Assembly (NCBI GenBank): GCA_017626405.1
Contig: JAGAIS010000001.1
Span: 124,001 to 188,000 of the forward strand
Length of the DNA stretch: 64,000 nt
Direction of reading: 5' to 3'
From: Bacilli bacterium
Lineage (GTDB): Bacteria > Bacillota_I > Bacilli_A > RF39 > UBA660
The notes beneath the pieces were generated by a model. It was given only the letters and a program-made list of their open reading frames with translations. It had not been told where the DNA came from and made no database searches. Positions 9,603 through 21,569 of this stretch are shown one piece after another; position 1 is the stretch's first letter, and every line of letters starts with the position of its first letter. The position numbers and the translations under genes were made by a program.

Positions 9603-12101
9603 ATGGGACTATTGAGAAGTTTAATAGATACTGAATATAAAGAATTAAAAAGATTTAAAAAAATAGCAGATAAGATTGTCGATTTAGAATCTAAATTTGA
9701 AAGTATGAGTGATGAGGAATTAAAAAACATGACTCAAAATTTAAAGGATAGATTAGAAAAAGGTGCAACGATTGATGATGAAGATATCATTGTAGATGCT
9801 TTTGCGACAGTAAGAGAAGCTGCATATCGTACAATTGGTGAAAAACCATACTATGTACAATTACTTGGTGGATTAGCATTGCATTATGGTAATATTGCAG
9901 AGTTAAAAACTGGTGAAGGTAAAACTTTAACTACTACTTTACCAGCATACTTAAATGCATTAACTGGTAAGGGCGTTCATGTTGTTACAGTTAATGAATA
10001 CTTAACACAAAGAAATGCTGATTGGATGGGACCTATTTATGAATTTTTAGGTTTAACAGTAGGTGTTAACTTACATGATATGGAACCTCAAGATAAAAGA
10101 GCAGTTTATAACTGTGATATAACTTACTCTACTAACAATGAAATTGGTTTCGATTATTTGAGAGATAATATGGTTGTTAGAGCTGAAGATAGAGTAATGA
10201 GAAAAATGAACTATGTAATTCTAGATGAAGTTGACTCTATTTTGATAGATGAAGCTAGAACTCCATTAATCATTAGTGGTGGTAAAGTAAATTCGGCTAA
10301 TCTTTATCGTGAAGCTGATAAGGCAGTAAAGGGATTAACTGAGGAAGAGGACTATACTGTTGATGCTAAGACTAAATCAGTTATGTTAACTGAAAGTGGT
10401 TCAAAGAAAATTGAAAAATTCTTCAAGATAACTAATTTATATGATACAAATAATACAGCATTAGTTCATCATATTAATCAAGCGTTAAAAGCTAACTATG
10501 GTATGAGTATAGATGTTGACTATGTTGTCGATGGAGAACAAAATGTCGTTATAGTAGATCAATTTACTGGACGTCTAATGCAAGGTCGTCAGTTCAGTGA
10601 TGGCTTACATCAAGCAATTGAAGCTAAAGAGGGAGTTAAGATTAACGAAGAAACTCGTACAATGGCTACTATAACATTCCAAAATTTATTTAGAATGTAT
10701 GCTAAGATTTCTGGTATGACAGGAACAGCTAAAACAGAAGAAGAAGAGTTTAGAGACATCTATAACATGTATGTTATTGAAATTCCTACGAATAAACCTT
10801 GTATCAGACGTGATATGGATGATGTAATGTATGCAACAATTGATGGCAAATATAATGCTATAGTAAAATACATTGAAAAAGTTCATGCAACAGGTCAACC
10901 AATTCTAGTTGGTACAATATCTGTTGAATCAAATGAAAAATTATCTAGAATGTTAGATAAAGTACATATTAAGCATGAAGTATTAAATGCTAAAAATCAT
11001 GCAAGAGAAGCTGAGATTATTGCCAAGGCTGGTGAAAAGGGAGCAGTTACCATTGCAACTAACATGGCTGGTCGTGGTACTGACATTAAGCTTGGCGAAG
11101 GTGTTGCTGATTTAGGTGGTCTATGTGTAATTGGTACTGAAAGACATGAATCTCGTCGTATCGATAACCAATTACGTGGACGTGCTGGTCGTCAAGGTGA
11201 TCCAGGATATTCTCAATTCTTTATCTCATTTGAAGATGAATTGATGCATCGTTTTGGTGCTGATAGAATTAAAGGAATGGTACAAAGACTAGGACTTGAT
11301 TCTATGGAACAAGTCAGAAGTAAAACTTTCACAAAATCAGTTGAAACTGCTCAAAAGAAAGTTGAAGGAAACAATTATGATATGCGTAAAAATCTACTAG
11401 ATTATGATAATATTGTATCTGAACAGAGAAACATTATTTATGCACGTCGTAATGAAATATTAGATACTGAAGATATTCATCATATTATTATCGATATTAT
11501 AAACGATTATGTAGATGAAATAATTGATGCTCATATAGCACCTGAAGGATATTTAACAGACGCTGATATGGATGCAATCTGCGATGTTGTAAATCATAAC
11601 TTAATTAAGAGAGATAAAATCAAAGAAGATACTTTATATGGTAAAAAAGAAGATGAAGTATTTGAAATAATTTCAAAAAGAGTTATTGAAGATTATGAAG
11701 AAAAAATCTCAGTAGTTCCTGAAGAAATTGTTAAAGATTTTGAAAAACATATTTCACTTCGTGTTATTGACGAAGCTTGGGTTAAACATATTTCTGATAT
11801 GGATAACTTAAGAGAAGGTATAGGACTTCGTGGATATGGTCAAAATAATCCTTTACAAGCTTATGCTTTAGAGGGATACCAAATGTTTGAGTCAATGCAA
11901 GATAATATTGATGCTAGCATTGCAACATTCCTACTTAAAATGGAGATTAAACAAAACTTCCAAGCTAAACCTGTAGAAGGTAAAGCTGAAGATGGTAAAC
12001 AAAAAGCTGCACCAAAACAAGCAAAGAGTAAAAAAGTTGGAAGAAATGATCAATGTCCATGTGGCAGTGGACGCAAGTATAAACAGTGTTGCGGAAAATA
12101 A
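9603..12101 (+). CDS. secA: Preprotein translocase ATPase SecA
   Basis: ATPase motor of the Sec pathway. The 832-residue product shows Walker A in GEGKTLTTTLPA near residue 103, Walker B DEVDSILIDEARTPL near 208, helicase motif VI region QLRGRAGRQGDPG near 522, and a C-terminal SEC-C zinc tail CPCGSGRKYKQCCGK (residues 818-832). AGGGAGG precedes ATG 9603. The 3' end is the integration target of the island: the tail-coding DNA is repeated at 14152, 21076 and, in part, 23044, so the present last 45 bases may have come with an integrated element while keeping the protein intact. Confidence 0.98.
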   Translation: MGLLRSLIDTEYKELKRFKKIADKIVDLESKFESMSDEELKNMTQNLKDRLEKGATIDDEDIIVDAFATVREAAYRTIGEKPYYVQLLGGLALHYGNIAELKTGEGKTLTTTLPAYLNALTGKGVHVVTVNEYLTQRNADWMGPIYEFLGLTVGVNLHDMEPQDKRAVYNCDITYSTNNEIGFDYLRDNMVVRAEDRVMRKMNYVILDEVDSILIDEARTPLIISGGKVNSANLYREADKAVKGLTEEEDYTVDAKTKSVMLTESGSKKIEKFFKITNLYDTNNTALVHHINQALKANYGMSIDVDYVVDGEQNVVIVDQFTGRLMQGRQFSDGLHQAIEAKEGVKINEETRTMATITFQNLFRMYAKISGMTGTAKTEEEEFRDIYNMYVIEIPTNKPCIRRDMDDVMYATIDGKYNAIVKYIEKVHATGQPILVGTISVESNEKLSRMLDKVHIKHEVLNAKNHAREAEIIAKAGEKGAVTIATNMAGRGTDIKLGEGVADLGGLCVIGTERHESRRIDNQLRGRAGRQGDPGYSQFFISFEDELMHRFGADRIKGMVQRLGLDSMEQVRSKTFTKSVETAQKKVEGNNYDMRKNLLDYDNIVSEQRNIIYARRNEILDTEDIHHIIIDIINDYVDEIIDAHIAPEGYLTDADMDAICDVVNHNLIKRDKIKEDTLYGKKEDEVFEIISKRVIEDYEEKISVVPEEIVKDFEKHISLRVIDEAWVKHISDMDNLREGIGLRGYGQNNPLQAYALEGYQMFESMQDNIDASIATFLLKMEIKQNFQAKPVEGKAEDGKQKAAPKQAKSKKVGRNDQCPCGSGRKYKQCCGK

Positions 12102-12135
12102 GCTCGCAAAGCCTTATAAATAAAGGGCTTGCGAG
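12057..12135 (+). repeat. secA-tail repeat copy 1 (left attachment site)
   Basis: Last 14 codons and stop of secA (12057-12101) plus the downstream stretch ending at 12135. The segment 12116-12134 (ATAAATAAAGGGCTTGCGA) is identical over 19 bases to 21123-21141, beyond the stop codon, which shows that the repeat is DNA-level and not just protein conservation. Interpreted as the left attachment site of a composite island. Confidence 0.75.
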
Positions 12136-12141
12136 CTTTTT
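12101..12141 (+). terminator. Terminator of secA
   Basis: Stem AGCTCGCAA (12101-12109) with TTGCGAGCT (12129-12137) extended inward by GCC/GGC-type pairs, then T residues. Its 3' arm is part of the repeated attachment sequence. Confidence 0.88.
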
Positions 12142-12184
12142 GCTACTTACAATTTTTAGGTAATTTTTCATAAAAAAAGGCTTC

Positions 12185-12206
12185 TAGATAAGTTTTAGAT
12201 AAGTTT
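12185..12206 (+). repeat. Paired arm-type repeats, module 1 left
   Basis: TAGATAAGTTT occurs at 12185 and again at 12196, exactly 11 bases apart. The same unit is paired at the other end of the module (14031 and 14043). Likely recombinase or excisionase arm sites by position; unproven. Confidence 0.55.
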
Positions 12207-12234
12207 TTTTATCAATTTGGAACATTTTTTTTGG

Positions 12235-12260
12235 GATTGTAAAATAAATATATTACAATC
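12235..12260. repeat. Inverted repeat upstream of abrB-like gene
   Basis: GATTGTAA (12235-12242) and TTACAATC (12253-12260), 8-base arms with a 10-base spacer, just upstream of the promoter. It has no T run, so an operator is more likely than a terminator. Confidence 0.4.
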
Positions 12261-12270
12261 TCATAATGTG

Positions 12271-12299
12271 TTTACTTTTAAGAATAATAAGTGTATAAT
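12271..12299 (+). promoter_or_regulatory. Promoter of the abrB-ABC operon
   Basis: TTTACT (12271-12276), 17-base spacer, TATAAT (12294-12299). Predicted start near 12306, immediately before a palindrome. Confidence 0.65.
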
Positions 12300-12310
12300 T
12301 AAGTATGAAA

Positions 12311-12328
12311 AGTATAACTTGTTATACT
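12311..12328. promoter_or_regulatory. Palindromic operator, probably autoregulatory
   Basis: AGTATAAC-TT-GTTATACT, perfect 8-base arms, lies just after the predicted transcript start and just before the ribosome site of an AbrB-fold regulator. Position suggests autorepression. Confidence 0.5.
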
Positions 12329-12342
12329 TGAAGGAGGCATAT

Positions 12343-12540
12343 ATGAAAGATAAGTTTGTAGGTATTGCTAAAGTTGGAGAAAAAGGGCAAATAGTAATTC
12401 CTAAAGAAGCAAGAGATATGTTTGATATTAAACCTGGAGATACTGTTGTAGTTTTATGTGATAAAAAGAAAGGAATGGCTATTGTTAAATCTGAAGTATT
12501 AGAAGATACTATGGATAAAATAATGCCAGATAATAAATAA
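12343..12540 (+). CDS. AbrB/SpoVT-family DNA-binding protein
   Basis: Swapped-hairpin AbrB-type regulator, 65 residues. The motif KVGEKGQIVIPKEARDMFDIKPGDTVVV (about residues 10-37, given here by its ends KVGEKGQIVIPKE and DIKPGDTVVV) defines the fold; the rest is a short acidic C-terminus. ATG 12343 has a perfect AAGGAGG six bases upstream; the open frame continues upstream to 12217 but lacks a ribosome site and crosses the promoter. It is one base from the ABC ATPase gene, so the three genes form an operon it probably controls through the palindrome at 12311. Confidence 0.88.
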   Translation: MKDKFVGIAKVGEKGQIVIPKEARDMFDIKPGDTVVVLCDKKKGMAIVKSEVLEDTMDKIMPDNK

Positions 12541-12541
12541 T

Positions 12542-13264
12542 ATGTATTCTATTGAAACAAAGAAATTAACTAAAAAGTTTAAAGATAAAATTGCAGTAAA
12601 TGAAATAGATTTAAATATTAAACAAGGAGAATTATTTGCACTTTTAGGAGTAAATGGAGCTGGAAAAACAACTACAATTAAGATGTTATCTGGTTTAATA
12701 CTTCCAACTTCTGGTGAGATAATAATAGAAAATATGAATATGAAAAAAGACATATTTAAAATAAAAGAAATCTTAAATGTATCACCACAAGAAACCGCCA
12801 TTGCTCCAAATTTAACAGTAAAAGAAAATTTGGAATTTATGGCTGGGGTATATCAAATAAAAGATAAAGAAAAAAAGATTGATGAACTTATTAAACAATT
12901 TAAACTTGATGAGGTTTTAAACAAAAAAGCAAAAACTCTATCTGGTGGATGGCAAAGAAAAGTATCTATTGCAATAAGTTTGATAAATGATCCAAAGATA
13001 TTATTTTTAGATGAACCAACATTAGGATTAGATGTTATTGCAAGAAAAGAGTTATGGAAAGTTATTAATTCATTAAAGGGTAAAATAACAATTATTTTAA
13101 CAACTCATTATATGGAAGAAGCAGAAAGTTTATCAGATAGAATCGGCATAATGGCAAATGGCAAGTTAATAGATATTGGAACTTCACAGGAGTTAATAAA
13201 AAAGACTAAAGCTAAAAACTTTGAAGATGCTTTTGTATCTATTGCAACTGGAGGTGAATTATAA
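12542..13264 (+). CDS. ABC transporter ATP-binding protein
   Basis: ATPase of an ABC-2-type exporter, 240 residues. Walker A GVNGAGKTTT near residue 37, Q-loop near 80, signature LSGGWQRK near 137, Walker B ILFLDEPTLGLDV near 157 and the H-loop in TTHYMEEAE near 190 are all present. No Shine-Dalgarno precedes the ATG, which starts two bases after the AbrB-like stop, so translation is coupled. Overlaps the permease start by one base. Substrate unknown; such trios often export peptides or lipids, or confer resistance. Confidence 0.9.
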   Translation: MYSIETKKLTKKFKDKIAVNEIDLNIKQGELFALLGVNGAGKTTTIKMLSGLILPTSGEIIIENMNMKKDIFKIKEILNVSPQETAIAPNLTVKENLEFMAGVYQIKDKEKKIDELIKQFKLDEVLNKKAKTLSGGWQRKVSIAISLINDPKILFLDEPTLGLDVIARKELWKVINSLKGKITIILTTHYMEEAESLSDRIGIMANGKLIDIGTSQELIKKTKAKNFEDAFVSIATGGEL

Positions 13265-13995
13265 TGAGAATGATTAATTTTGCTAAAAGAAACTTTAAAG
13301 AATTAATTAGAGATCCTTTAAGTTTAGTATTTGAAATTGTTTTACCATTATTCTTATTATTTATATTTCAACAATTTGATATTCCTGCAGAAAATTATAG
13401 ATTAGAAAACTTCACACCGTCTATAATTCTATTTGGATTTTCATTTATTACATTGTTTACTGCTACATTAATTGCAAAGGATAGAACTTCTTCGTTATTA
13501 ATTAGACTTGGAACTTCTCCAATGAAATCAAGTGATTATATTTTAGGATATATATTATCATTACTACCTATAGTACTAATTCAAAATGTTTTATTCTTTA
13601 TAACTGCAATTGCTATGGGGTTAGAATTTACAATTAGTATAATACCAACTATATTAATATCAATGATTATTTCTATTTTCTTTATATCATTAGGTATATT
13701 AATAGGTAGTTTAGTTAGTGAAAAAGGAACAGGTGGATTAGGAAGTATAATTGTTCAATTAGTATGCTTTACAAGTGGTATGTATTTTCCTAAAGAAGTA
13801 ATGGGTGGAGTATTTGAAATTATATGTAAATCATTACCATTTGAAGCGTGTTTAACTATAATTCAAGGAACGTTACATAATGATTTTAGTAATTTAACAC
13901 TTCTTCATATAATAGTATTTTTAATTTATTTCATAACAGTTATTTTCTTGTCAATTATTACATTTAAAAAGAAAATGATTAGTGATAATAAATAG
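13264..13995 (+). CDS. ABC-2-type permease
   Basis: Membrane partner of the preceding ATPase, 243 residues with about six hydrophobic helices (near 25-45, 55-75, 100-125, 135-160, 165-190, 215-235), typical of ABC-2 permeases. Overlaps the ATPase stop (TAATG) and has GGAGGTG seven bases upstream. Last gene of module 1; no terminator is obvious before the paired arm repeats at 14031. Confidence 0.85.
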   Translation: MRMINFAKRNFKELIRDPLSLVFEIVLPLFLLFIFQQFDIPAENYRLENFTPSIILFGFSFITLFTATLIAKDRTSSLLIRLGTSPMKSSDYILGYILSLLPIVLIQNVLFFITAIAMGLEFTISIIPTILISMIISIFFISLGILIGSLVSEKGTGGLGSIIVQLVCFTSGMYFPKEVMGGVFEIICKSLPFEACLTIIQGTLHNDFSNLTLLHIIVFLIYFITVIFLSIITFKKKMISDNK

Positions 13996-14030
13996 TTCGC
14001 AATATTTTGATTTATTTAATTGGATTTTTT

Positions 14031-14052
14031 TAGATAAGTTATTAGATAAGTT
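14031..14052 (+). repeat. Paired arm-type repeats, module 1 right
   Basis: TAGATAAGTT at 14031 and 14043 (12 bases apart), the same unit as at 12185/12196. Their presence about 100 bases inside each end defines module 1. Confidence 0.55.
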
Positions 14053-14151
14053 CTACGAAAAAACTTACAATAATCGAATAAAAAATTATAAATTTAAAAT
14101 AAAAAATACCAATTTAAAAGGAAAAAATTACCTGGTTGTTTTAATATTTTA

Positions 14152-14219
14152 CCATGTGGCTCAGGGAAAAAATACAAACAATGCTGTGGTAAGTAGTAGG
14201 AAATATAAGGGTTTGCGAG
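14152..14219 (+). repeat. secA-tail repeat copy 2 (internal attachment site)
   Basis: Bases 14152-14196 encode PCGSGKKYKQCCGK and a stop, the SecA zinc tail, with nothing of SecA upstream. The following stretch to 14219 resembles the post-secA sequence (GGGTTTGCGAG). A displaced gene 3' end of this kind is what site-specific integration leaves behind. Confidence 0.75.
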
Positions 14220-14222
14220 GAT

Positions 14223-14342
14223 TTTGTCCACGTAAAAATTGACCGAAAATTGCCATTTGTCCACATTTTGTCCACGTAAATTTAAAATTGTGGACAATAG
14301 GGCAAAAAATGTTGTGAAATTTAGTACACGTTTTGTGGACAA
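14223..14342. repeat. TTTGTCCAC repeat cluster, module 2 left
   Basis: TTTGTCCAC occurs at 14223, 14256 and 14267, and its complement GTGGACAA at 14290 and 14335. The 20 bases 14256-14275 are identical to 20923-20942 at the other end of module 2, with the same 11-base spacing. Probable integrase arm-binding sites; a DnaA-box-like role is the alternative, since TTGTCCACA differs from TTATCCACA by one base. Confidence 0.65.
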
Positions 14343-14354
14343 TTTATAAAGATA

Positions 14355-14381
14355 AATGTCATCATTCGATGGCATTTTTTG
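14355..14381 (+). terminator. Small terminator before the integrase
   Basis: ATGTCATC (14356-14363) pairs with GATGGCAT (14368-14375) with one G-U, then six T. It would block read-through from outside the element into the integrase. Confidence 0.6.
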
Positions 14382-14412
14382 TTTACCAATTTTAGAAAAG
14401 GAGAGTATAAAA

Positions 14413-15720
14413 ATGGTAAGCGTAAGAAAACGTGGAAAGGTATATGAATACCGATTTGAAACTGCTTCGGTTGATGGCACAAGAAAATGGATATCTAAAT
14501 CAGGATTTCCAACAAGACAGGATGCATTAAATCAAGGTGCATTAGATTATACAGAATATTATAAGATAGGCAGAGTAAGAAAAAATAAGGATATGTCATA
14601 TTCAGATTATTTAGATTACTGGATTGATACTTATTGCAACTTTAATCTTAAATATTCAACTATTGTCACATACTTAAATATTATTAAACTTTATTTAAAA
14701 CCTATGTTAGGAAGATATGCTCTATGGCAAATTGATTCTCAAATGTTACAAGAGTTTATTAATAAGATATTTGTAGAAAAGAATTTATCTAAATGGTATT
14801 TAAAAAACATTATGAAAGTAGTAAAAGGTTCGTTGAGATATGCATGTTATTCAGTTAATTTTATAAATGAAAATCCTGCTGAAAAAGTACATATTCCAAG
14901 ATATGAAGTAGTATGTGGAGATCCAGCACATATATTTACTCAGGAAGAAATAGAAAAGATATTAGATAGATTTAAAGATGTTCCTTATATTTATTATTCA
15001 TTTCTAACAGCATATTACACAGGAATGAGAGTATCAGAAGTATATGGATTAACTTGGGATAATATTAATTTTGAAAAAAAGACTATAACTGTTAATAAAA
15101 ATATTATTAAAAAGAATAAGTATGGACTACCTAAAAGATATTGTATAAGTAAAGGACACTCTGTTGAAGTATGGAGTTATGGTACTTGTAAAAATCCTCA
15201 AAGTCAAAGAACAATATCTATAGGAGATACATTAGTCAAAGCATTAAAAGAATATAAGAAACTTCAAGAAGAAAATAAAGAATACTATGGAGAATCTTAT
15301 CTAAAACATTATGAAAAAAGAATAATGAATGAATACACAAATAGACCTGAAATAAAAATAGTTGATGCTAAGGTTGAAATAAAAGTAGATCTACCTGAAG
15401 CTAAATTAGTATTTGTAAGTGCTAATGGAGATTTTAGAGGAACTGAATCACCAAGACATGCATTTAAAGTTATTAATTATGAACTTGGAATACCTTGTAG
15501 ATTTCATGATTTTAGAGATACTCATGCAACTAGATTAATAGAACAAGGCGCTGATATAAAAGCAGTATCTAAAAGATTAGGACATTCAACTATAATGACT
15601 ACATATAATATATATGTTAGAGTAACAAATAAAATGGAAACTGAAACAGTTAATAAATTTGAAGATTATGCTAATACTTTAGATATTCCACCTGTACAAG
15701 ATATAGAATATCAAGATTAG
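14413..15720 (+). CDS. int: Tyrosine site-specific integrase
   Basis: Tyrosine recombinase, 435 residues, expected to catalyse integration and excision of the island. Residues 1-50 form an arm-binding AP2-like beta domain (VRKRGKVYEYRFETAS), then a SAM-like core-binding domain (about 60-165), then the catalytic domain: Arg in YYTGMRVSEVYG near 205, HDFRDTH near 365, the LGHS box near 388 and the nucleophile Tyr in IYVRV near 401. All catalytic residues are present, so it looks active. AAAGGAGAG precedes ATG 14413. It lies next to secA-tail copy 2 and the TTTGTCCAC repeats, the usual position of an integrase relative to its own attachment site. Confidence 0.93.
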   Translation: MVSVRKRGKVYEYRFETASVDGTRKWISKSGFPTRQDALNQGALDYTEYYKIGRVRKNKDMSYSDYLDYWIDTYCNFNLKYSTIVTYLNIIKLYLKPMLGRYALWQIDSQMLQEFINKIFVEKNLSKWYLKNIMKVVKGSLRYACYSVNFINENPAEKVHIPRYEVVCGDPAHIFTQEEIEKILDRFKDVPYIYYSFLTAYYTGMRVSEVYGLTWDNINFEKKTITVNKNIIKKNKYGLPKRYCISKGHSVEVWSYGTCKNPQSQRTISIGDTLVKALKEYKKLQEENKEYYGESYLKHYEKRIMNEYTNRPEIKIVDAKVEIKVDLPEAKLVFVSANGDFRGTESPRHAFKVINYELGIPCRFHDFRDTHATRLIEQGADIKAVSKRLGHSTIMTTYNIYVRVTNKMETETVNKFEDYANTLDIPPVQDIEYQD

Positions 15721-15739
15721 TCATTCCCTAAATAAGGAA

Positions 15740-15767
15740 TTGACAAATTTTTAAAAAGTGATAATAT
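15740..15767 (+). promoter_or_regulatory. Promoter of leader peptide transcript
   Basis: TTGACA (15740-15745), 16-base spacer, TAATAT (15762-15767). A consensus -35 is unusual in this window, where most promoters rely on an extended -10. Confidence 0.65.
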
Positions 15768-15812
15768 ATATAACCAATGAAAGAGGTATTCTCTAGAAAT
15801 GGAGGTACAGCT

Positions 15813-15878
15813 ATGAAAAAACAATCGAAATTAATAAATCTTTATAATGAATTATTTAGAGGTGTCGGTAGTATTTAA
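15813..15878 (+). CDS. 21-residue leader peptide
   Basis: A short frame MKKQSKLINLYNELFRGVGS-I preceded by a strong GGAGG (15801-15805) at good spacing. Its stop codon lies in the loop of a 15-base terminator stem, so a ribosome finishing the peptide would sit on the 5' arm. That geometry suits control of the downstream ArpU-like gene by translation of the leader. It may also be an independent small peptide gene. No homologue is recognised. Confidence 0.6.
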   Translation: MKKQSKLINLYNELFRGVGSI

Positions 15879-15906
15879 ACACTTTAATACTATTGACACC
15901 TTTTTT
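15861..15906 (+). terminator. Strong terminator or attenuator overlapping the leader peptide
   Basis: Fifteen-base stem, 15861-15875 with 15886-15900, including two G-U pairs, 10-base loop, then six T. It lies between the leader peptide promoter and the gene at 15935. Confidence 0.88.
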
Positions 15907-15934
15907 CGTAGTATTTAGAAGTAAGGGTGGTAAA

Positions 15935-16558
15935 ATGATTAAAGTAAAGGATGGTAAATTACAAGCTGAATTACTAGATAATAAAGGAACATTATCTAAC
16001 AAAATAATTGAACAATATGATTATATTGAACTAAAAAATGATTTTGCTGAAATAGTAGATATATTATCTACAAATATGTTAGTTCATGCTATGTATCAAG
16101 AGGCATTGAAATATGAAATAACTGAAGACTTGGAATTTAAAATTTTTATTGATGAAAATGTTAAAGATTATACAATGACCTATGATTTTGCTACTAATTA
16201 TACGTATTTTTCTAAAACTAATACTAGTCTAATCACATTAGATAGAAAAAACTATGATAGATCTATAGAAATGTGTATGATTCTTTTAAAAAAAGTAAAA
16301 GCATCATATGATAAATTAAATGAAGTAGAAAAATTTATAATTAAATCTTTAGAGTTTGATAATCCACCTGAAACTGATGAAGAGTTAATGGATAGATTAA
16401 TGACATATAAAAATGGCTATTATTTATCAAAGAAAAGTGCATATATTAAAATGGCATTACAATTAAATATTAAAAATGTTATAAAAAGAGAGAGAACAGA
16501 TATAATAAAACAAGCTATGGCAGATGCTTGTATTGTTACAATTTCTGATAATAAATAA
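15935..16558 (+). CDS. Phage/element protein with ArpU-like C-terminus
   Basis: Not firmly identified; 207 residues. The N-terminal half (1-125) is acidic and has no recognised motif. The C-terminal part, from LNEVEKFIIKSLEF through the Tyr/Ser-rich turn to KKSAYIKMALQLNI, resembles the sigma-like helix-turn-helix of phage ArpU/RinA late-transcription regulators. Start 15935 has GGGTGG upstream; the frame extends into the terminator and is not used there. Its C-terminal 90 residues recur in module 3 (21267-21569). Preceded by the leader/attenuator. Confidence 0.55.
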   Translation: MIKVKDGKLQAELLDNKGTLSNKIIEQYDYIELKNDFAEIVDILSTNMLVHAMYQEALKYEITEDLEFKIFIDENVKDYTMTYDFATNYTYFSKTNTSLITLDRKNYDRSIEMCMILLKKVKASYDKLNEVEKFIIKSLEFDNPPETDEELMDRLMTYKNGYYLSKKSAYIKMALQLNIKNVIKRERTDIIKQAMADACIVTISDNK

Positions 16559-16605
16559 TAATCGGAAATTAGTAATATTACGAACAAAAGAAATTAGAAA
16601 ATGTG

Positions 16606-16614
16606 TGGTATAAT
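16606..16614 (+). promoter_or_regulatory. Extended -10 promoter of the HTH-DUF2975 gene
   Basis: TGGTATAAT, 21 bases before ATG 16635. Confidence 0.65.
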
Positions 16615-16634
16615 TGTTATAGGTTGGTGATGTT

Positions 16635-17519
16635 ATGAACTTTGGTGAAAATCTAAAAAACTTCAGAAAAAATAGTAAAATGTCACAGGAAGTGTTAGCG
16701 GAAAAAGTTGGAGTTTCAAGACAAGCAGTTAGTAGATGGGAAGTTGGGGAAGCATACCCGGAAATGAGTAATATTGTTGCTTTATGTTCTATATTTCATT
16801 GCAATATAAATGATCTTATTAATGACAATATAGTAGATATAGAATCATTTGATAAAGAAACTCAAGATAGCATAGTTAAATTTAAAAAAGAACAACAAAA
16901 GAGGATGAAAGGTTTAAGTAAAGCTATATATATAATTACAAATATTGTTAAAACAATAATTGCAATTCCAACAGTATGTATGATTCTTTTATGTTTAATA
17001 TTTCCATTTGTTTCGAATACATTTGAAATAAATAATAACAAAATTAAAATAATAAATAAAGAAATAGATTATCGTATAAATGGAAATATAATAAATATTG
17101 ATGGAACTGATCATTATGTTGAAACAAGAACTAATATAGATGAATTTATAAAGAGTCATGATAATACATTTTTTAGAATAAGTATTGAATATATATTAAT
17201 ATGTATGACGATTCTTTCAATATTGACAGTCTTATCATTACATTGTTTATATAAATTATATAAAAATATTTATAATGGTAATACACCATTTACAATAGAA
17301 AATGAAAAAATAGTTCATAAAGCTTGTTTGTTTGTGTTAGTAGAAATGGTTCTACAAAAAATAACAGCACTCATTTATTCTATAATAGCTCATTTAGATT
17401 TAGCAATTGATATAAATATAAAAGATATAATTGTTATTTTAATAGGTGTAAGTATTATTTATATATTTAAATATGGTAGAATGATTCAAGCAGATACTAA
17501 AGCCAAGATATATGATTAA
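16635..17519 (+). CDS. XRE-type regulator fused to DUF2975 membrane domain
   Basis: An N-terminal Cro/C1 helix-turn-helix (about residues 5-60; MSQEVLAEKVGVSRQAVSRWE) is joined to a membrane domain with four hydrophobic helices (near 100-120, 180-205, 230-255, 265-285) and the DUF2975 hallmark GNTPFTIEN near 217. Such proteins are membrane-tethered regulators often placed beside ABC transporters. TTGGTGATG precedes the start. A short terminator and the FtsX-type transporter genes follow, which it may regulate. Confidence 0.8.
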   Translation: MNFGENLKNFRKNSKMSQEVLAEKVGVSRQAVSRWEVGEAYPEMSNIVALCSIFHCNINDLINDNIVDIESFDKETQDSIVKFKKEQQKRMKGLSKAIYIITNIVKTIIAIPTVCMILLCLIFPFVSNTFEINNNKIKIINKEIDYRINGNIINIDGTDHYVETRTNIDEFIKSHDNTFFRISIEYILICMTILSILTVLSLHCLYKLYKNIYNGNTPFTIENEKIVHKACLFVLVEMVLQKITALIYSIIAHLDLAIDINIKDIIVILIGVSIIYIFKYGRMIQADTKAKIYD

Positions 17520-17525
17520 TAAAAT

Positions 17526-17546
17526 GCAATCTTTTGATTGCTTTTT
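17526..17546 (+). terminator. Short hairpin terminator
   Basis: GCAATC-TTTT-GATTGC followed by five T. The six-base stem is weak and may allow read-through to the transporter genes. Confidence 0.5.
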
Positions 17547-17620
17547 ATTATGCAATTAAAAAGTGGCAGACAATAATTATAGTTTTTAGTATGATTAATG
17601 TGTCGAAAGGAGAGATTATC

Positions 17621-20053
17621 GTGAGAATAATCATAACACATATTTTAAGAAATATTAAAGAAAAGAAAGGACGTAGTTTATTAATTATATTATCGTTGAT
17701 GATTGCTTCAGTTGTATTTATTTTAAATTTAACTATACCTAATCAAATAGTTGAAACTAAAGCAAAACAATCAAGAGATGCAATTGGTAAATCAGATGTT
17801 TTAGTGGCATCATATGTTCCATTTAATATTAATGATATTAAATTATCTAATGAAGAATCAAAAATAGTAGGAGTAAATGATTTATATACAATTCATAAAG
17901 ATAAGACACTAGTAATATATGGTACTGATATTAAAGAAGCATTTAATATTGATTTAATTAATAATATAGATTTGTTAGATAATGAAATTATTATTAGTAA
18001 AACAACTGCTGATAAATATAAATATAAATTAAATGATATTATAACTATTGATTTAATGGATAGTAAATATGAATTAAAGATAAAAGATATAGTAGAAGCT
18101 AAAGGTTTATTATCATTTAAATCATTATCAGGAATAATTAATAATGATACATATAATAAAATTACTTCTAATGAAAACAATAAATATAGAACATATTATA
18201 TAGATGTATTAAATAATGAAAAAGTAGGTGATGTTAAAAAGTACATTCAAGATAATAATGATAAAAAAGAATATATGGTAGAAAAATTAGTAGATGAGGA
18301 AAAAATAAGAGAAGATAATTATTATACTCAATTTATATTATTAGTTATAATGATCATGGCTACTATAATGATATTTTTTGTAGTAAATACATTAAATAAA
18401 ATGATAGTAATGGAAAGAATGCCTGTTATAGGAACATTTAGATCAGTTGGTGCATCTAAATTTAAGATGAATATGTTATTAGTATTAGAGAATAGTATAT
18501 ATGGATTATTAGGTGGATCAGTTGGTGCATTAGTATCAATTTTAATAAATAATTTTGCTGCAAGTATGTTAACAGGAACAACAATAAAATCAACTGTACC
18601 AGTTAATAATTTAATATCAGGAATAATATTTACTATATGCTTAGAAGTATTTATGTCTTTAGCATCAATTATTAAATCCAATAAATATTCAATTAAAGAA
18701 ATAATGTTTGAAGGTAAAAATAGTAAAGCAGGTTTTAATATTAAAGAATCAATTATTAGTTTTATATTAATTCTTATTTCATTAATAACATATTTTGCTA
18801 TAAGTGATACTAATTCTTTATTAAGTGCATTAAGTTTAATAATGTTCTGGGTAGGCATAGCGTATTTTATACCAACTATGATGTTATTCTTATCAAAGAT
18901 AATATGTGGTATAGCTAAAATGATTAACAGTGGATCACTTTTGATGGCAGGTAAAAATTTAGGCTTTAATAAATTACTTATCTCTTCAACTAGATTAGTA
19001 GTTATATCAACTTCAATTATGTTAGTTATTGTTAATATATCAATGTCATTTAATAGTATGATTGACTCATATAAAATTCAATTTTCTGGATATGATGGGA
19101 CAATTAGAGATATATCTAAAAAATATAATGAATATGCTTCAATAAATAATGTTGATAATGTTAAGAATATAGAATATACATTTATGTATTCTAATGATGA
19201 TATTACATATAATGATGGGAAAACATTAGATGCTGGGCCTATGTTTTTAGGAATGGATAAATCAAATCCATCTATTAAAGAATTAGATTATAAAATAAAT
19301 GATTTAAAAGATGATGAATGTTTATTTGATGAAATACTATTAAAGAATAACAATCTTAAAGTAGGAGATACAATTGATTTTTACCTAAAAACTCAAGATA
19401 GTCATATTAAAGTTAAAATAGTTGGAACAGTTAATTCATATTATATGAGTACTCAAAGAGAGATTGTTGTATTAACTGATGATGTATTCAAACAAAAAAT
19501 AACGGAAGTTCCATTCTCAATTGAATTTTCAGTTAATGATAATAATAAAGTAAGAGATACAATTGAATTAATGGAAAGAGAATTAAAAGATCCAGATATA
19601 ACTATATGGACTATAGATGATTTCTGTAATATTCAAAGAAAGAATATAAATTCATTCATGAGTTTATTCTATATAATTATTGCATTATCATTAATACTAT
19701 CATTTGTAGGTATAATTAATAATCAATTAATAAGTTTTATGGAAAGAACAAAAGAAATTGCAGTACTAAATTCAATATGTATGAGTAAATCTCAATTAAG
19801 AAGAATGTTAGTTATTGAAAATATTACATCTAATATTGTTGCATGTGCATTTGGATTTGGAGTATCAATTATGTCATTAAGATATATGAATAAATTAATG
19901 TATGGAATTAAAATGTATACAGATGTTCAATATCAGTATAATGTAGGATTAATGATCATGGGTATTGTATTAGTAGTATTATTATCTACTGTGATTGTAC
20001 CAATTAATAAGATGAAAAAAATAAATGTAGTAGAAGCTATAAAATATGAATAG
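17621..20053 (+). CDS. FtsX-type ABC transporter permease
   Basis: Large permease of the MacB/FtsX/BceB class, 810 residues. One N-terminal helix (about 17-35) is followed by an extracytoplasmic domain, then clusters of helices near 240-360, 400-500 and 685-800, giving two FtsX domains with a second extracytoplasmic domain near 490-670. The start is taken as GTG 17621 because AAAGGAGAG lies six bases upstream; an earlier in-frame codon at 17534 has none. Works with the ATPase that follows. Candidate roles are export of peptides, lipoproteins or drugs; the substrate is unknown. Confidence 0.82.
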   Translation: MRIIITHILRNIKEKKGRSLLIILSLMIASVVFILNLTIPNQIVETKAKQSRDAIGKSDVLVASYVPFNINDIKLSNEESKIVGVNDLYTIHKDKTLVIYGTDIKEAFNIDLINNIDLLDNEIIISKTTADKYKYKLNDIITIDLMDSKYELKIKDIVEAKGLLSFKSLSGIINNDTYNKITSNENNKYRTYYIDVLNNEKVGDVKKYIQDNNDKKEYMVEKLVDEEKIREDNYYTQFILLVIMIMATIMIFFVVNTLNKMIVMERMPVIGTFRSVGASKFKMNMLLVLENSIYGLLGGSVGALVSILINNFAASMLTGTTIKSTVPVNNLISGIIFTICLEVFMSLASIIKSNKYSIKEIMFEGKNSKAGFNIKESIISFILILISLITYFAISDTNSLLSALSLIMFWVGIAYFIPTMMLFLSKIICGIAKMINSGSLLMAGKNLGFNKLLISSTRLVVISTSIMLVIVNISMSFNSMIDSYKIQFSGYDGTIRDISKKYNEYASINNVDNVKNIEYTFMYSNDDITYNDGKTLDAGPMFLGMDKSNPSIKELDYKINDLKDDECLFDEILLKNNNLKVGDTIDFYLKTQDSHIKVKIVGTVNSYYMSTQREIVVLTDDVFKQKITEVPFSIEFSVNDNNKVRDTIELMERELKDPDITIWTIDDFCNIQRKNINSFMSLFYIIIALSLILSFVGIINNQLISFMERTKEIAVLNSICMSKSQLRRMLVIENITSNIVACAFGFGVSIMSLRYMNKLMYGIKMYTDVQYQYNVGLMIMGIVLVVLLSTVIVPINKMKKINVVEAIKYE

Positions 20054-20851: not shown

Positions 20852-20942
20852 TGTCCACATTGATTAAGCAATCAATATATGTTATAATTTCCTTGGAAAC
20901 AAAAGATAAAATGTATGATGACTTTGTCCACATTTTGTCCAC
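20852..20942 (+). repeat. TGTCCAC repeats, module 2 right
   Basis: TGTCCACATT at 20852 and TTTGTCCAC at 20923 and 20934, 11 bases apart. Bases 20923-20942 are identical to 14256-14275. These pair with the left cluster and define module 2 as one recombination unit. Confidence 0.65.
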
Positions 20943-21075: not shown

Positions 21076-21141
21076 GCATGTGGCTCAGGGAAGAAATATA
21101 AACAATGTTGTGGTAAATAGCGATAAATAAAGGGCTTGCGA
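21076..21141 (+). repeat. secA-tail repeat copy 3 (internal attachment site)
   Basis: Bases 21076-21120 encode ACGSGKKYKQCCGK and a stop. Bases 21123-21141 match the post-secA sequence 12116-12134 exactly over 19 bases. In the zinc-tail part it is closer to copy 2 (TGTGGCTCAGGGAA shared) than to secA itself. Confidence 0.78.
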
Positions 21142-21266: not shown

Positions 21267-21569
21267 ATGAAGTTAATATTAAATGGTGGTAGCGATGTTA
21301 ATTTAGTAACTTCTGCAAGACAAAAATTAAATAAAGTAGAAAAATTTATAATAAAATCTTTAGAATTTGATAATCCACTCGAAACTGATGAAGAATTAAT
21401 AGATGGATTAATGACATGTAAAAATGTTTATTATTTATCAAAGAAAAGTGCATATGTTAAAATGGCTATACAATTAAACATTAAAAATGTTAAAAAAATG
21501 GAATCAGATGACTTTTTTAAAAATATGTTAGCTGATACATGTATTGTAGCAATAGGTAATAATAAATAA
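21267..21569 (+). pseudogene. Truncated copy of the ArpU-like gene
   Basis: The last 80 or so of 100 codons match the C-terminus of the 15935 gene: both contain VEKFIIKSLEFDNP, ETDEEL, YYLSKKSAY and KMA-QLNIKNV, and nucleotide similarity is obvious. The N-terminal 120 residues are missing and the first 20 codons are unrelated. No clear ribosome site precedes it. Probably a decayed duplicate, but a shortened functional protein cannot be excluded. Confidence 0.6.

What the first reader, a model, noticed from the sequence alone, without database searches (positions are those of the whole stretch)
15740..15937. Leader peptide with its stop codon in the loop of a strong terminator: possible attenuator
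A consensus promoter, a strong GGAGG, a 21-codon frame and a 15-base terminator stem are stacked so that the ribosome position decides whether the stem forms. The ArpU-like gene follows 29 bases after the T run. This could sense translation, or the tiny peptide may itself be a signal or a toxin.
Basis: partly seen in the sequence, partly recalled or inferred. Interest (0 to 1): 0.58.

Follow-up and report, generated by a model that had tools for sequence, protein, structure and literature searches.

The report
Ribosome-coupled attenuator before mobile-element genes
A short regulatory leader sits in front of a mobile-element gene: a tiny translated reading frame runs straight into a transcription-stop hairpin, and dozens of relatives of this leader sit in front of DNA recombinases in a family of uncultured gut Bacilli, so a translating ribosome probably decides whether the mobility genes are switched on.

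Summary
The anatomy is real: promoter (15740-15767), hairpin holding the GGAGG, 21-codon ORF (15813-15878), strong terminator (15858-15906) whose loop begins with the ORF's stop, next gene at 15935. It belongs to a conserved family. Relatives occur across one family of uncultured Bacilli, mostly before large serine recombinases of elements inserted at tRNA/tmRNA 3' ends; the window type precedes a weakly ArpU-like gene behind a tyrosine integrase. Of 74 leaders with both parts, the Shine-Dalgarno-linked frame is open to the hairpin in 73, against 1 and 3 for the other frames; 18 of 18 divergent clusters are open. Yet the hairpin is entered in all three frames, so no C-terminal peptide is conserved. 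Two other leaders before ArpU-like genes share the design. Best reading (inferred): a pyrBI/pil1-type attenuator in which a ribosome entering the hairpin blocks termination, with a start-site hairpin as gate. Peptide signal or toxin is disfavoured. Not shown: read-through, its dependence on translation, the signal. No Rfam match; seven searches of an open-access library found no such leader described. Verdict: new variant of a known kind.

The parts
14356..15720 (+). Tyrosine integrase gene directly upstream; its transcript would also run into the leader
   Evidence: ORF; Pfam Phage_integrase E 2.5e-27; PHROG integrase
15723..15740 (.). Imperfect palindrome ATTCC..GGAAT touching the -35 box, possible operator
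   Evidence: Arms of 5 or more in 27 of 82 leaders against 3 of 82 shuffled; function inferred
15740..15767 (+). Promoter TTGACA-16-TAATAT
   Evidence: conserved in relatives
15786..15808 (+). Start-site hairpin that pairs the Shine-Dalgarno sequence
15801..15805 (+). Shine-Dalgarno GGAGG of the leader ORF
   Evidence: sequence
15813..15878 (+). Leader ORF, 21 codons plus TAA
   Evidence: frame kept open in relatives
15858..15906 (+). Intrinsic terminator: 18-pair hairpin (5' arm 15858-15875, loop 15876-15885, 3' arm 15886-15903) with T run 15901-15906; stop codon at 15876-15878
15935..16558 (+). Controlled gene, 207 aa, weakly ArpU-like, otherwise unknown
   Evidence: structure prediction failed

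Best explanation
A translation-coupled transcription attenuator of mobile elements. RNA polymerase starts near 15772 and transcribes the leader. If no ribosome follows closely, the hairpin 15858-15903 forms and transcription stops at the T run. If a ribosome has started at 15813 and follows the polymerase, it runs into the 5' arm and stops with the first loop bases in its A site, covering that arm; the hairpin cannot form and transcription continues into the gene at 15935 (in most relatives, a large serine recombinase). The start site is itself folded into a hairpin, so leader translation, and with it expression, is probably conditional or rare. Shown here: anatomy, conservation, open frame, three entry frames, start-site hairpin (predicted), association with recombinases. 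Inferred: transcription start, termination, read-through and its direction, and any signal acting on the start-site hairpin.
For: Frame open from ATG to hairpin in 73 of 74 leaders that have both a Shine-Dalgarno-linked ATG and an intact hairpin (82 examined), against 1 and 3 of 74 in the other two frames; 18 of 18 clusters open, shuffled expectation 0.17 each; entry frames over clusters 5/7/6; the stop lies 10-27 nt into the hairpin in 70 of 73. Terminator in 24 divergent leaders: mean z -7.1, all with at least 5 T in 8; 4 of 16 hairpin pairs changed on both sides in 28 sequences. Start region folds better than that of 38 window genes (mean z -1.41 against -0.08, p 2e-5). In a sample chosen by recombinase, not by leader, 17 of 28 genes have by script an ORF ending in, or within 12 nt before, a terminator just upstream (2 more of the 30 loci fetched had too little upstream sequence). 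Sequence-unrelated leaders with the same design precede ArpU-like genes in L006/L126/L128 and L127/L129. No consistent antiterminator partner. Precedent: in pil1 a longer leader whose stop lies in the hairpin raises expression, and start-codon, stop and terminator mutants were made (PMC3894217, abstract and passages); a terminator close behind a stop codon is repressed by the ribosome (PMC4824070, passages).
Against: No expression data. 8 of the 82 leaders lack one of the parts: L104, L111 and L112 have no Shine-Dalgarno-linked ATG although the recombinases of L111 and L112 look complete; L043 has lost its start codon; L095 has lost its 5' part; L089, L096 and L107 are partial. L088 has an early stop. 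Three ORFs (L045, L085, L105) read through the hairpin. In the recombinase sample 11 of 28 fail by script: L169 is a script miss (its leader is the one of L051); L154, L162, L165 and L170 have terminator-like hairpins visible by eye that the script did not accept; L151, L153, L164 and L167 have a terminator but no qualifying ORF; L158 and L166 show no such leader. L018, L019, L125, L130 and L131 have a terminator before the ArpU-like gene but no clear ORF. Reduced start-site accessibility is only modest (0.31 against 0.47, p 0.03).
Confidence: 0.62

Rival explanations
1. Plain transcription shield: the terminator only protects the mobility gene from outside transcription, as proposed for 5' terminators of insertion sequences; the small ORF is incidental.
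For: Terminators before transposases are common ('mobile attenuators', PMC2965389, passages). The serine-recombinase elements lie just behind tRNA/tmRNA genes. Some relatives have the terminator without an ORF.
Against: The leader's own promoter lies upstream of the terminator and is conserved; the Shine-Dalgarno frame is kept open in 73 of 74 against 1 and 3; many tRNA-linked elements carry a further terminator-like inverted repeat with T run right behind the tRNA (read by eye).
Confidence: 0.17
2. Peptide-specific sensing or activity: the nascent peptide stalls the ribosome for a ligand or antibiotic, or the finished peptide is a signal or small toxin.
For: The N-terminal part is Lys-rich, often with Tyr-Asn, and mildly conserved (pN/pS 0.65); EESVVFRLY recurs in one large group.
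Against: Divergent members enter the hairpin in three frames and end in unrelated residues (RGVKSITC, KRCQ, KRSQRY, RGVGSI); in the EESVVFRLY group the hairpin itself constrains the nucleotides.
Confidence: 0.1
3. Protein- or ligand-dependent switch: a factor binds the start-site hairpin or promoter palindrome and alone sets expression, with the ORF as a minor modulator.
For: Conserved 5' hairpin and palindrome at the -35 box.
Against: Does not explain the strict open frame; no binder known. Compatible with the best explanation as an added layer.
Confidence: 0.11

Closest known systems
Streptococcus gallolyticus pil1/pil3 leader attenuator (PMC3894217)
   Same: Promoter, short ORF with its own ribosome site, stop inside or near a hairpin terminator, downstream operon; ribosome prevents hairpin formation
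   Different: There a repeat tract changes ORF length by phase variation and controls pili; here no repeat tract, the frame is kept open, the start site is in a predicted hairpin, and the targets are recombinase or regulator genes of mobile elements
E. coli pyrBI attenuator (recalled; mentioned in passages of PMC4824070)
   Same: Terminator lies within reach of a translated leader; coupling of ribosome and polymerase sets read-through
   Different: No evidence here of a nucleotide-sensitive pause; different gene and organism; additional start-site hairpin
Tn916 tet(M) orf12 attenuator (PMC9154091, passages; details recalled)
   Same: Leader ORF and attenuation regulating a mobile element of Firmicutes
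   Different: Controls a resistance gene and downstream transfer genes; unrelated sequence (recalled, not compared here)
'Mobile attenuators' upstream of transposases (PMC2965389, passages)
   Same: Conserved terminators upstream of mobility genes
   Different: Described there as plain 5' terminators against outside transcription; no leader ORF described in the passages read

Membership tests
Translation-coupled (pyrBI/pil1-type) attenuator | Promoter, then leader ORF with ribosome site, then intrinsic terminator, then the controlled gene | tested here: met
   by sequence:
Translation-coupled (pyrBI/pil1-type) attenuator | Leader stop inside or close to the hairpin | tested here: met
   10-27 nt into the hairpin in 70 of 73 open leaders
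Translation-coupled (pyrBI/pil1-type) attenuator | Selection on the open frame | tested here: met
   73/74 against 1/74 and 3/74; 18 of 18 clusters
Translation-coupled (pyrBI/pil1-type) attenuator | Read-through rises with leader translation | not testable with these tools
   needs reporter fusions or RNA 3'-end mapping
trp/his-type amino-acid attenuator | Run of regulatory codons | tested here: not met
   no run of one scarce amino acid in the leader peptides listed (read by eye)
trp/his-type amino-acid attenuator | Conserved antiterminator pairing | tested here: not met
   partners of the 5' arm differ or are weak in the 12 leaders shown; 11 of 24 leaders have 6 or more upstream pairs, but at different places
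Nascent-peptide stalling leader (tnaC, erm type) | Conserved residues at the stall site | tested here: not met
   three entry frames with different C-termini
Known Rfam families | Match to a curated RNA family | tested here: not met
   0 at gathering score for the window; in seven related loci only tRNA at E up to 1
ArpU family (controlled gene) | Score above the TIGR01637 cut-off | tested here: not met
   no match for the window protein; 19.5 and 16.5 bits for two homologues, cut-off 43.1

The most novel reading that the evidence does not exclude
A two-stage RNA switch for horizontal transfer: a start-site hairpin gates translation of a frame-free leader ORF, and only a translated leader lets RNA polymerase reach the recombinase, so that element mobility is tied to translation-transcription coupling. 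The module has spread between unrelated element types (serine-recombinase elements at tRNA/tmRNA ends and tyrosine-integrase elements at secA) and the design has arisen more than once before ArpU-like genes.
Probability: 0.4. Interest if true: 0.68.

Novelty: new variant of a known kind. Interest (0 to 1): 0.52.

Why it matters
If true, the decision of a large group of mobile elements to express their recombinase depends on ribosome-polymerase coupling, not on a peptide or a ligand sensed by a riboswitch. The natural set of leaders, which keep the frame open but use all three frames, is an unusually clean comparative argument that the position of the ribosome and not the peptide is selected. 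It gives a ready panel for testing how start-site structure, ORF length and hairpin position set read-through.

Tried and rejected
Rejected: conserved-peptide stalling (first suggested by EESVVFRLY; dropped when distant members showed three frames). Classical antiterminator: no consistent partner. Attachment site: the hairpin is unlikely to be a recombination site, because both arms stay intact in integrated copies (reasoned, not tested). Upstream in-frame start at the RNA 5' end: its frame is lost in members with a one-base shorter loop, such as L031 (read).

Led nowhere: leader in plasmid and phage records, no match; pattern in viral contigs, none; ArpU-like protein in viral contigs, none; covariance model in 23 genomes of other families of the class, 0 of 23 (an empty answer without a positive control); model in 247 genomes of the class, 11 with matches, all of the window's family. 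Structure prediction of the controlled protein failed (mean pLDDT 35.5), so no fold search was made. Model R2 re-found fewer leaders than R1 and missed the window itself; the counts therefore rest on R1 hits and the loci read. One search counts 109 of 291 genomes at E 0.001, but many are short AT-rich chance matches; by my count of its listing 38 of 291 have one at E 1e-10 or better.

Literature: seven searches; (serine recombinase, leader peptide, attenuation, terminator together) gave 0 papers. Only open-access PMC papers are held. For papers cited I saw: PMC3894217 abstract, section list and passages; PMC4824070, PMC2965389, PMC9154091 and PMC5704250 passages only; all others the search listing only.

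Full report
What is there. The leader lies between a tyrosine integrase (14356-15720) and a 207-residue gene (15935-16558). It has a promoter-like site at 15740-15767, a GGAGG at 15801, an ORF 15813-15878 of 21 codons, and a hairpin 15858-15903 followed by TTTTTT. The stop codon forms the first three bases of the ten-base loop. The hairpin is far better than shuffles (z -6.3).

A family, not a single case. In the window's own genome a second copy (80% identical) lies on another contig before a large serine recombinase. In 291 genomes of the same family, 38 have a match at E 1e-10 or better by my count of the listing. A covariance model built from 28 leaders found 56 of 241 genomes of the order at E 0.001; 40 of the places, mostly the weaker ones, were fetched. 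Of those 40, 35 had a serine recombinase just downstream by tblastn; the other five were L089, L095, L096, L107 and L115, of which L096 and L115 are cut by contig ends. Record titles of named relatives call them Bacilli, Bacillales or Erysipelotrichaceae, several from rumen or gut of ruminants. No match was found in 23 genomes of other families of the class, nor in the plasmid and phage collections. One search had no positive control, so the restriction to one family is provisional.

The frame test. I examined 82 leaders, including near-duplicates. 74 have a Shine-Dalgarno-linked ATG and an intact hairpin start. In 73 the frame is open to the hairpin; the other two frames are open in 1 and 3. 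The exception, L088, has a recombinase matched only in its residues 2-44. Clustered at 75% similarity of the coding part there are 18 groups, all open; composition-shuffled sequences would be open in 17% of cases each. So the frame is under selection. But the frame in which the hairpin is entered is free: 5, 7 and 6 clusters for the three frames. The peptides end in RGVGSI, EESVVFRLY, RGVKSITC, KRCQ, KRSQRY and others. The hairpin carries stops in all frames, so an ORF that enters it usually ends there; three (L045, L085, L105) read through. What is kept is a ribosome arriving at the hairpin, not a peptide. The N-terminal part is mildly conserved (pN/pS 0.65). The hairpin start was found with patterns that I chose after reading the loci; the same interval serves all three frames, so this does not favour one of them.

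The hairpins. In 24 divergent leaders the terminator has mean energy -23.7 kcal/mol, z from -8.6 to -4.9, and all have at least 5 T in 8. In 28 sequences 4 of 16 terminator pairs show changes on both sides; 0 of 500 shuffles reach the covariation score of the whole structure, though related sequences can exceed shuffles without structure. The start region is predicted to fold into a hairpin that pairs the Shine-Dalgarno sequence. In the closely related set its helix shows only one-sided changes and mismatches, no double changes, so the case there rests on folding: 20 representatives against 38 window genes, mean z -1.41 against -0.08, p 2e-5; accessibility 0.31 against 0.47, p 0.03. In distant members the start hairpin has other sequences of like shape, or the ribosome site lies in the hairpin loop (by eye).

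Independent repeats of the design. Homologues of the 207-residue gene were found in 16 of 291 genomes, the window's own included. Upstream of it, L006, L126 and L128 carry a leader unrelated in sequence, MRNKALLIYTRKQFSLLINGFNERN, whose stop lies in a terminator; L127 and L129 carry MANISYYLYLDLLSREC, likewise ending in a terminator (their promoter and first bases resemble the main family, so full independence is not certain); L018, L019, L125, L130 and L131 have a terminator but no clear ORF (L132 and L133 gave no hit there). In a sample chosen by recombinase and not by leader, 17 of 28 have by script an ORF ending in, or up to 12 nt before, a terminator; the remainder is described under evidence against.

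How it most likely works. Work on other bacteria shows that a ribosome stopping inside or just before a hairpin blocks termination: pil1 of Streptococcus gallolyticus (PMC3894217; abstract and passages read) and a reporter study in which a terminator close behind a stop codon is nearly fully repressed and recovers beyond about 27-30 bases (PMC4824070; passages read). The leaders here have the stop 10-27 nt inside the hairpin in 70 of 73. By that logic the translated leader is read through and the untranslated one terminated. The start-site hairpin would keep leader translation low or conditional. I could not find what opens it. No consistent antiterminator was seen.

Elements. The window element lies between extra copies of the secA 3' end at 14153 and 21077 (secA itself 9603-12101; the name secA is recalled from the protein sequence, no call names it). 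The serine-recombinase elements begin right after the CCA of many different tRNA genes and tmRNA: in 42 of 57 loci scanned such a gene lies upstream on the same strand. The copy in the window's genome is about 8.4 kb long, ends in a 45-bp imperfect repeat, and carries a Mob_Pre relaxase, a PemK-type protein and a PDC-S46 defence candidate. A 2017 review says that mobilizable elements with site-specific serine recombinases insert within dispensable genes, and in the passages read it lists tRNA 3' ends for tyrosine integrases (PMC5704250).

Novelty and score. The principle is known; the sequence family, its targets, the start-site hairpin and the frame-free conservation are, to my searches, not described. 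I score it a new variant of a known kind, interest 0.52.

Noticed in passing
L002, L028, L140 and other loci outside the window (42 of 57 scanned): Large serine-recombinase elements sit exactly behind the CCA end of many different tRNA genes and tmRNA, with a shared element end, a conserved roughly 90-aa ORF of unknown family, then the leader and recombinase. The review passages read list tRNA 3' ends for tyrosine integrases.
   Followed up: partly
L140 about 10960-19410 (minus strand), window's genome contig C8: An 8.4-kb element behind tRNA-His with end repeats, Mob_Pre relaxase, PemK-type protein and PDC-S46 defence candidate.
   Followed up: partly
window 14153-14213 and 21077-21137: Two extra copies of the 3' end of secA (82% alike) flank the window element; the full secA is at 9603-12101. 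Suggests tandem integration at the secA 3' end.
   Followed up: no
window 14256-14275 and 20923-20942: Identical 20-mers made of two TTTTGTCCAC-like units inside both ends of the element, possible integrase arm sites.
   Followed up: no
window 21267-21569: Truncated second copy of the gene behind the leader (91% over 175 nt), probably left by a related element.
   Followed up: no
window 15908-15919: GTAGTATTTAGA just after the T run repeats part of the hairpin's 5' arm; meaning unknown.
   Followed up: no
L046 and L107: The leader's promoter and 5' part are joined to other sequence without the terminator.
   Followed up: no
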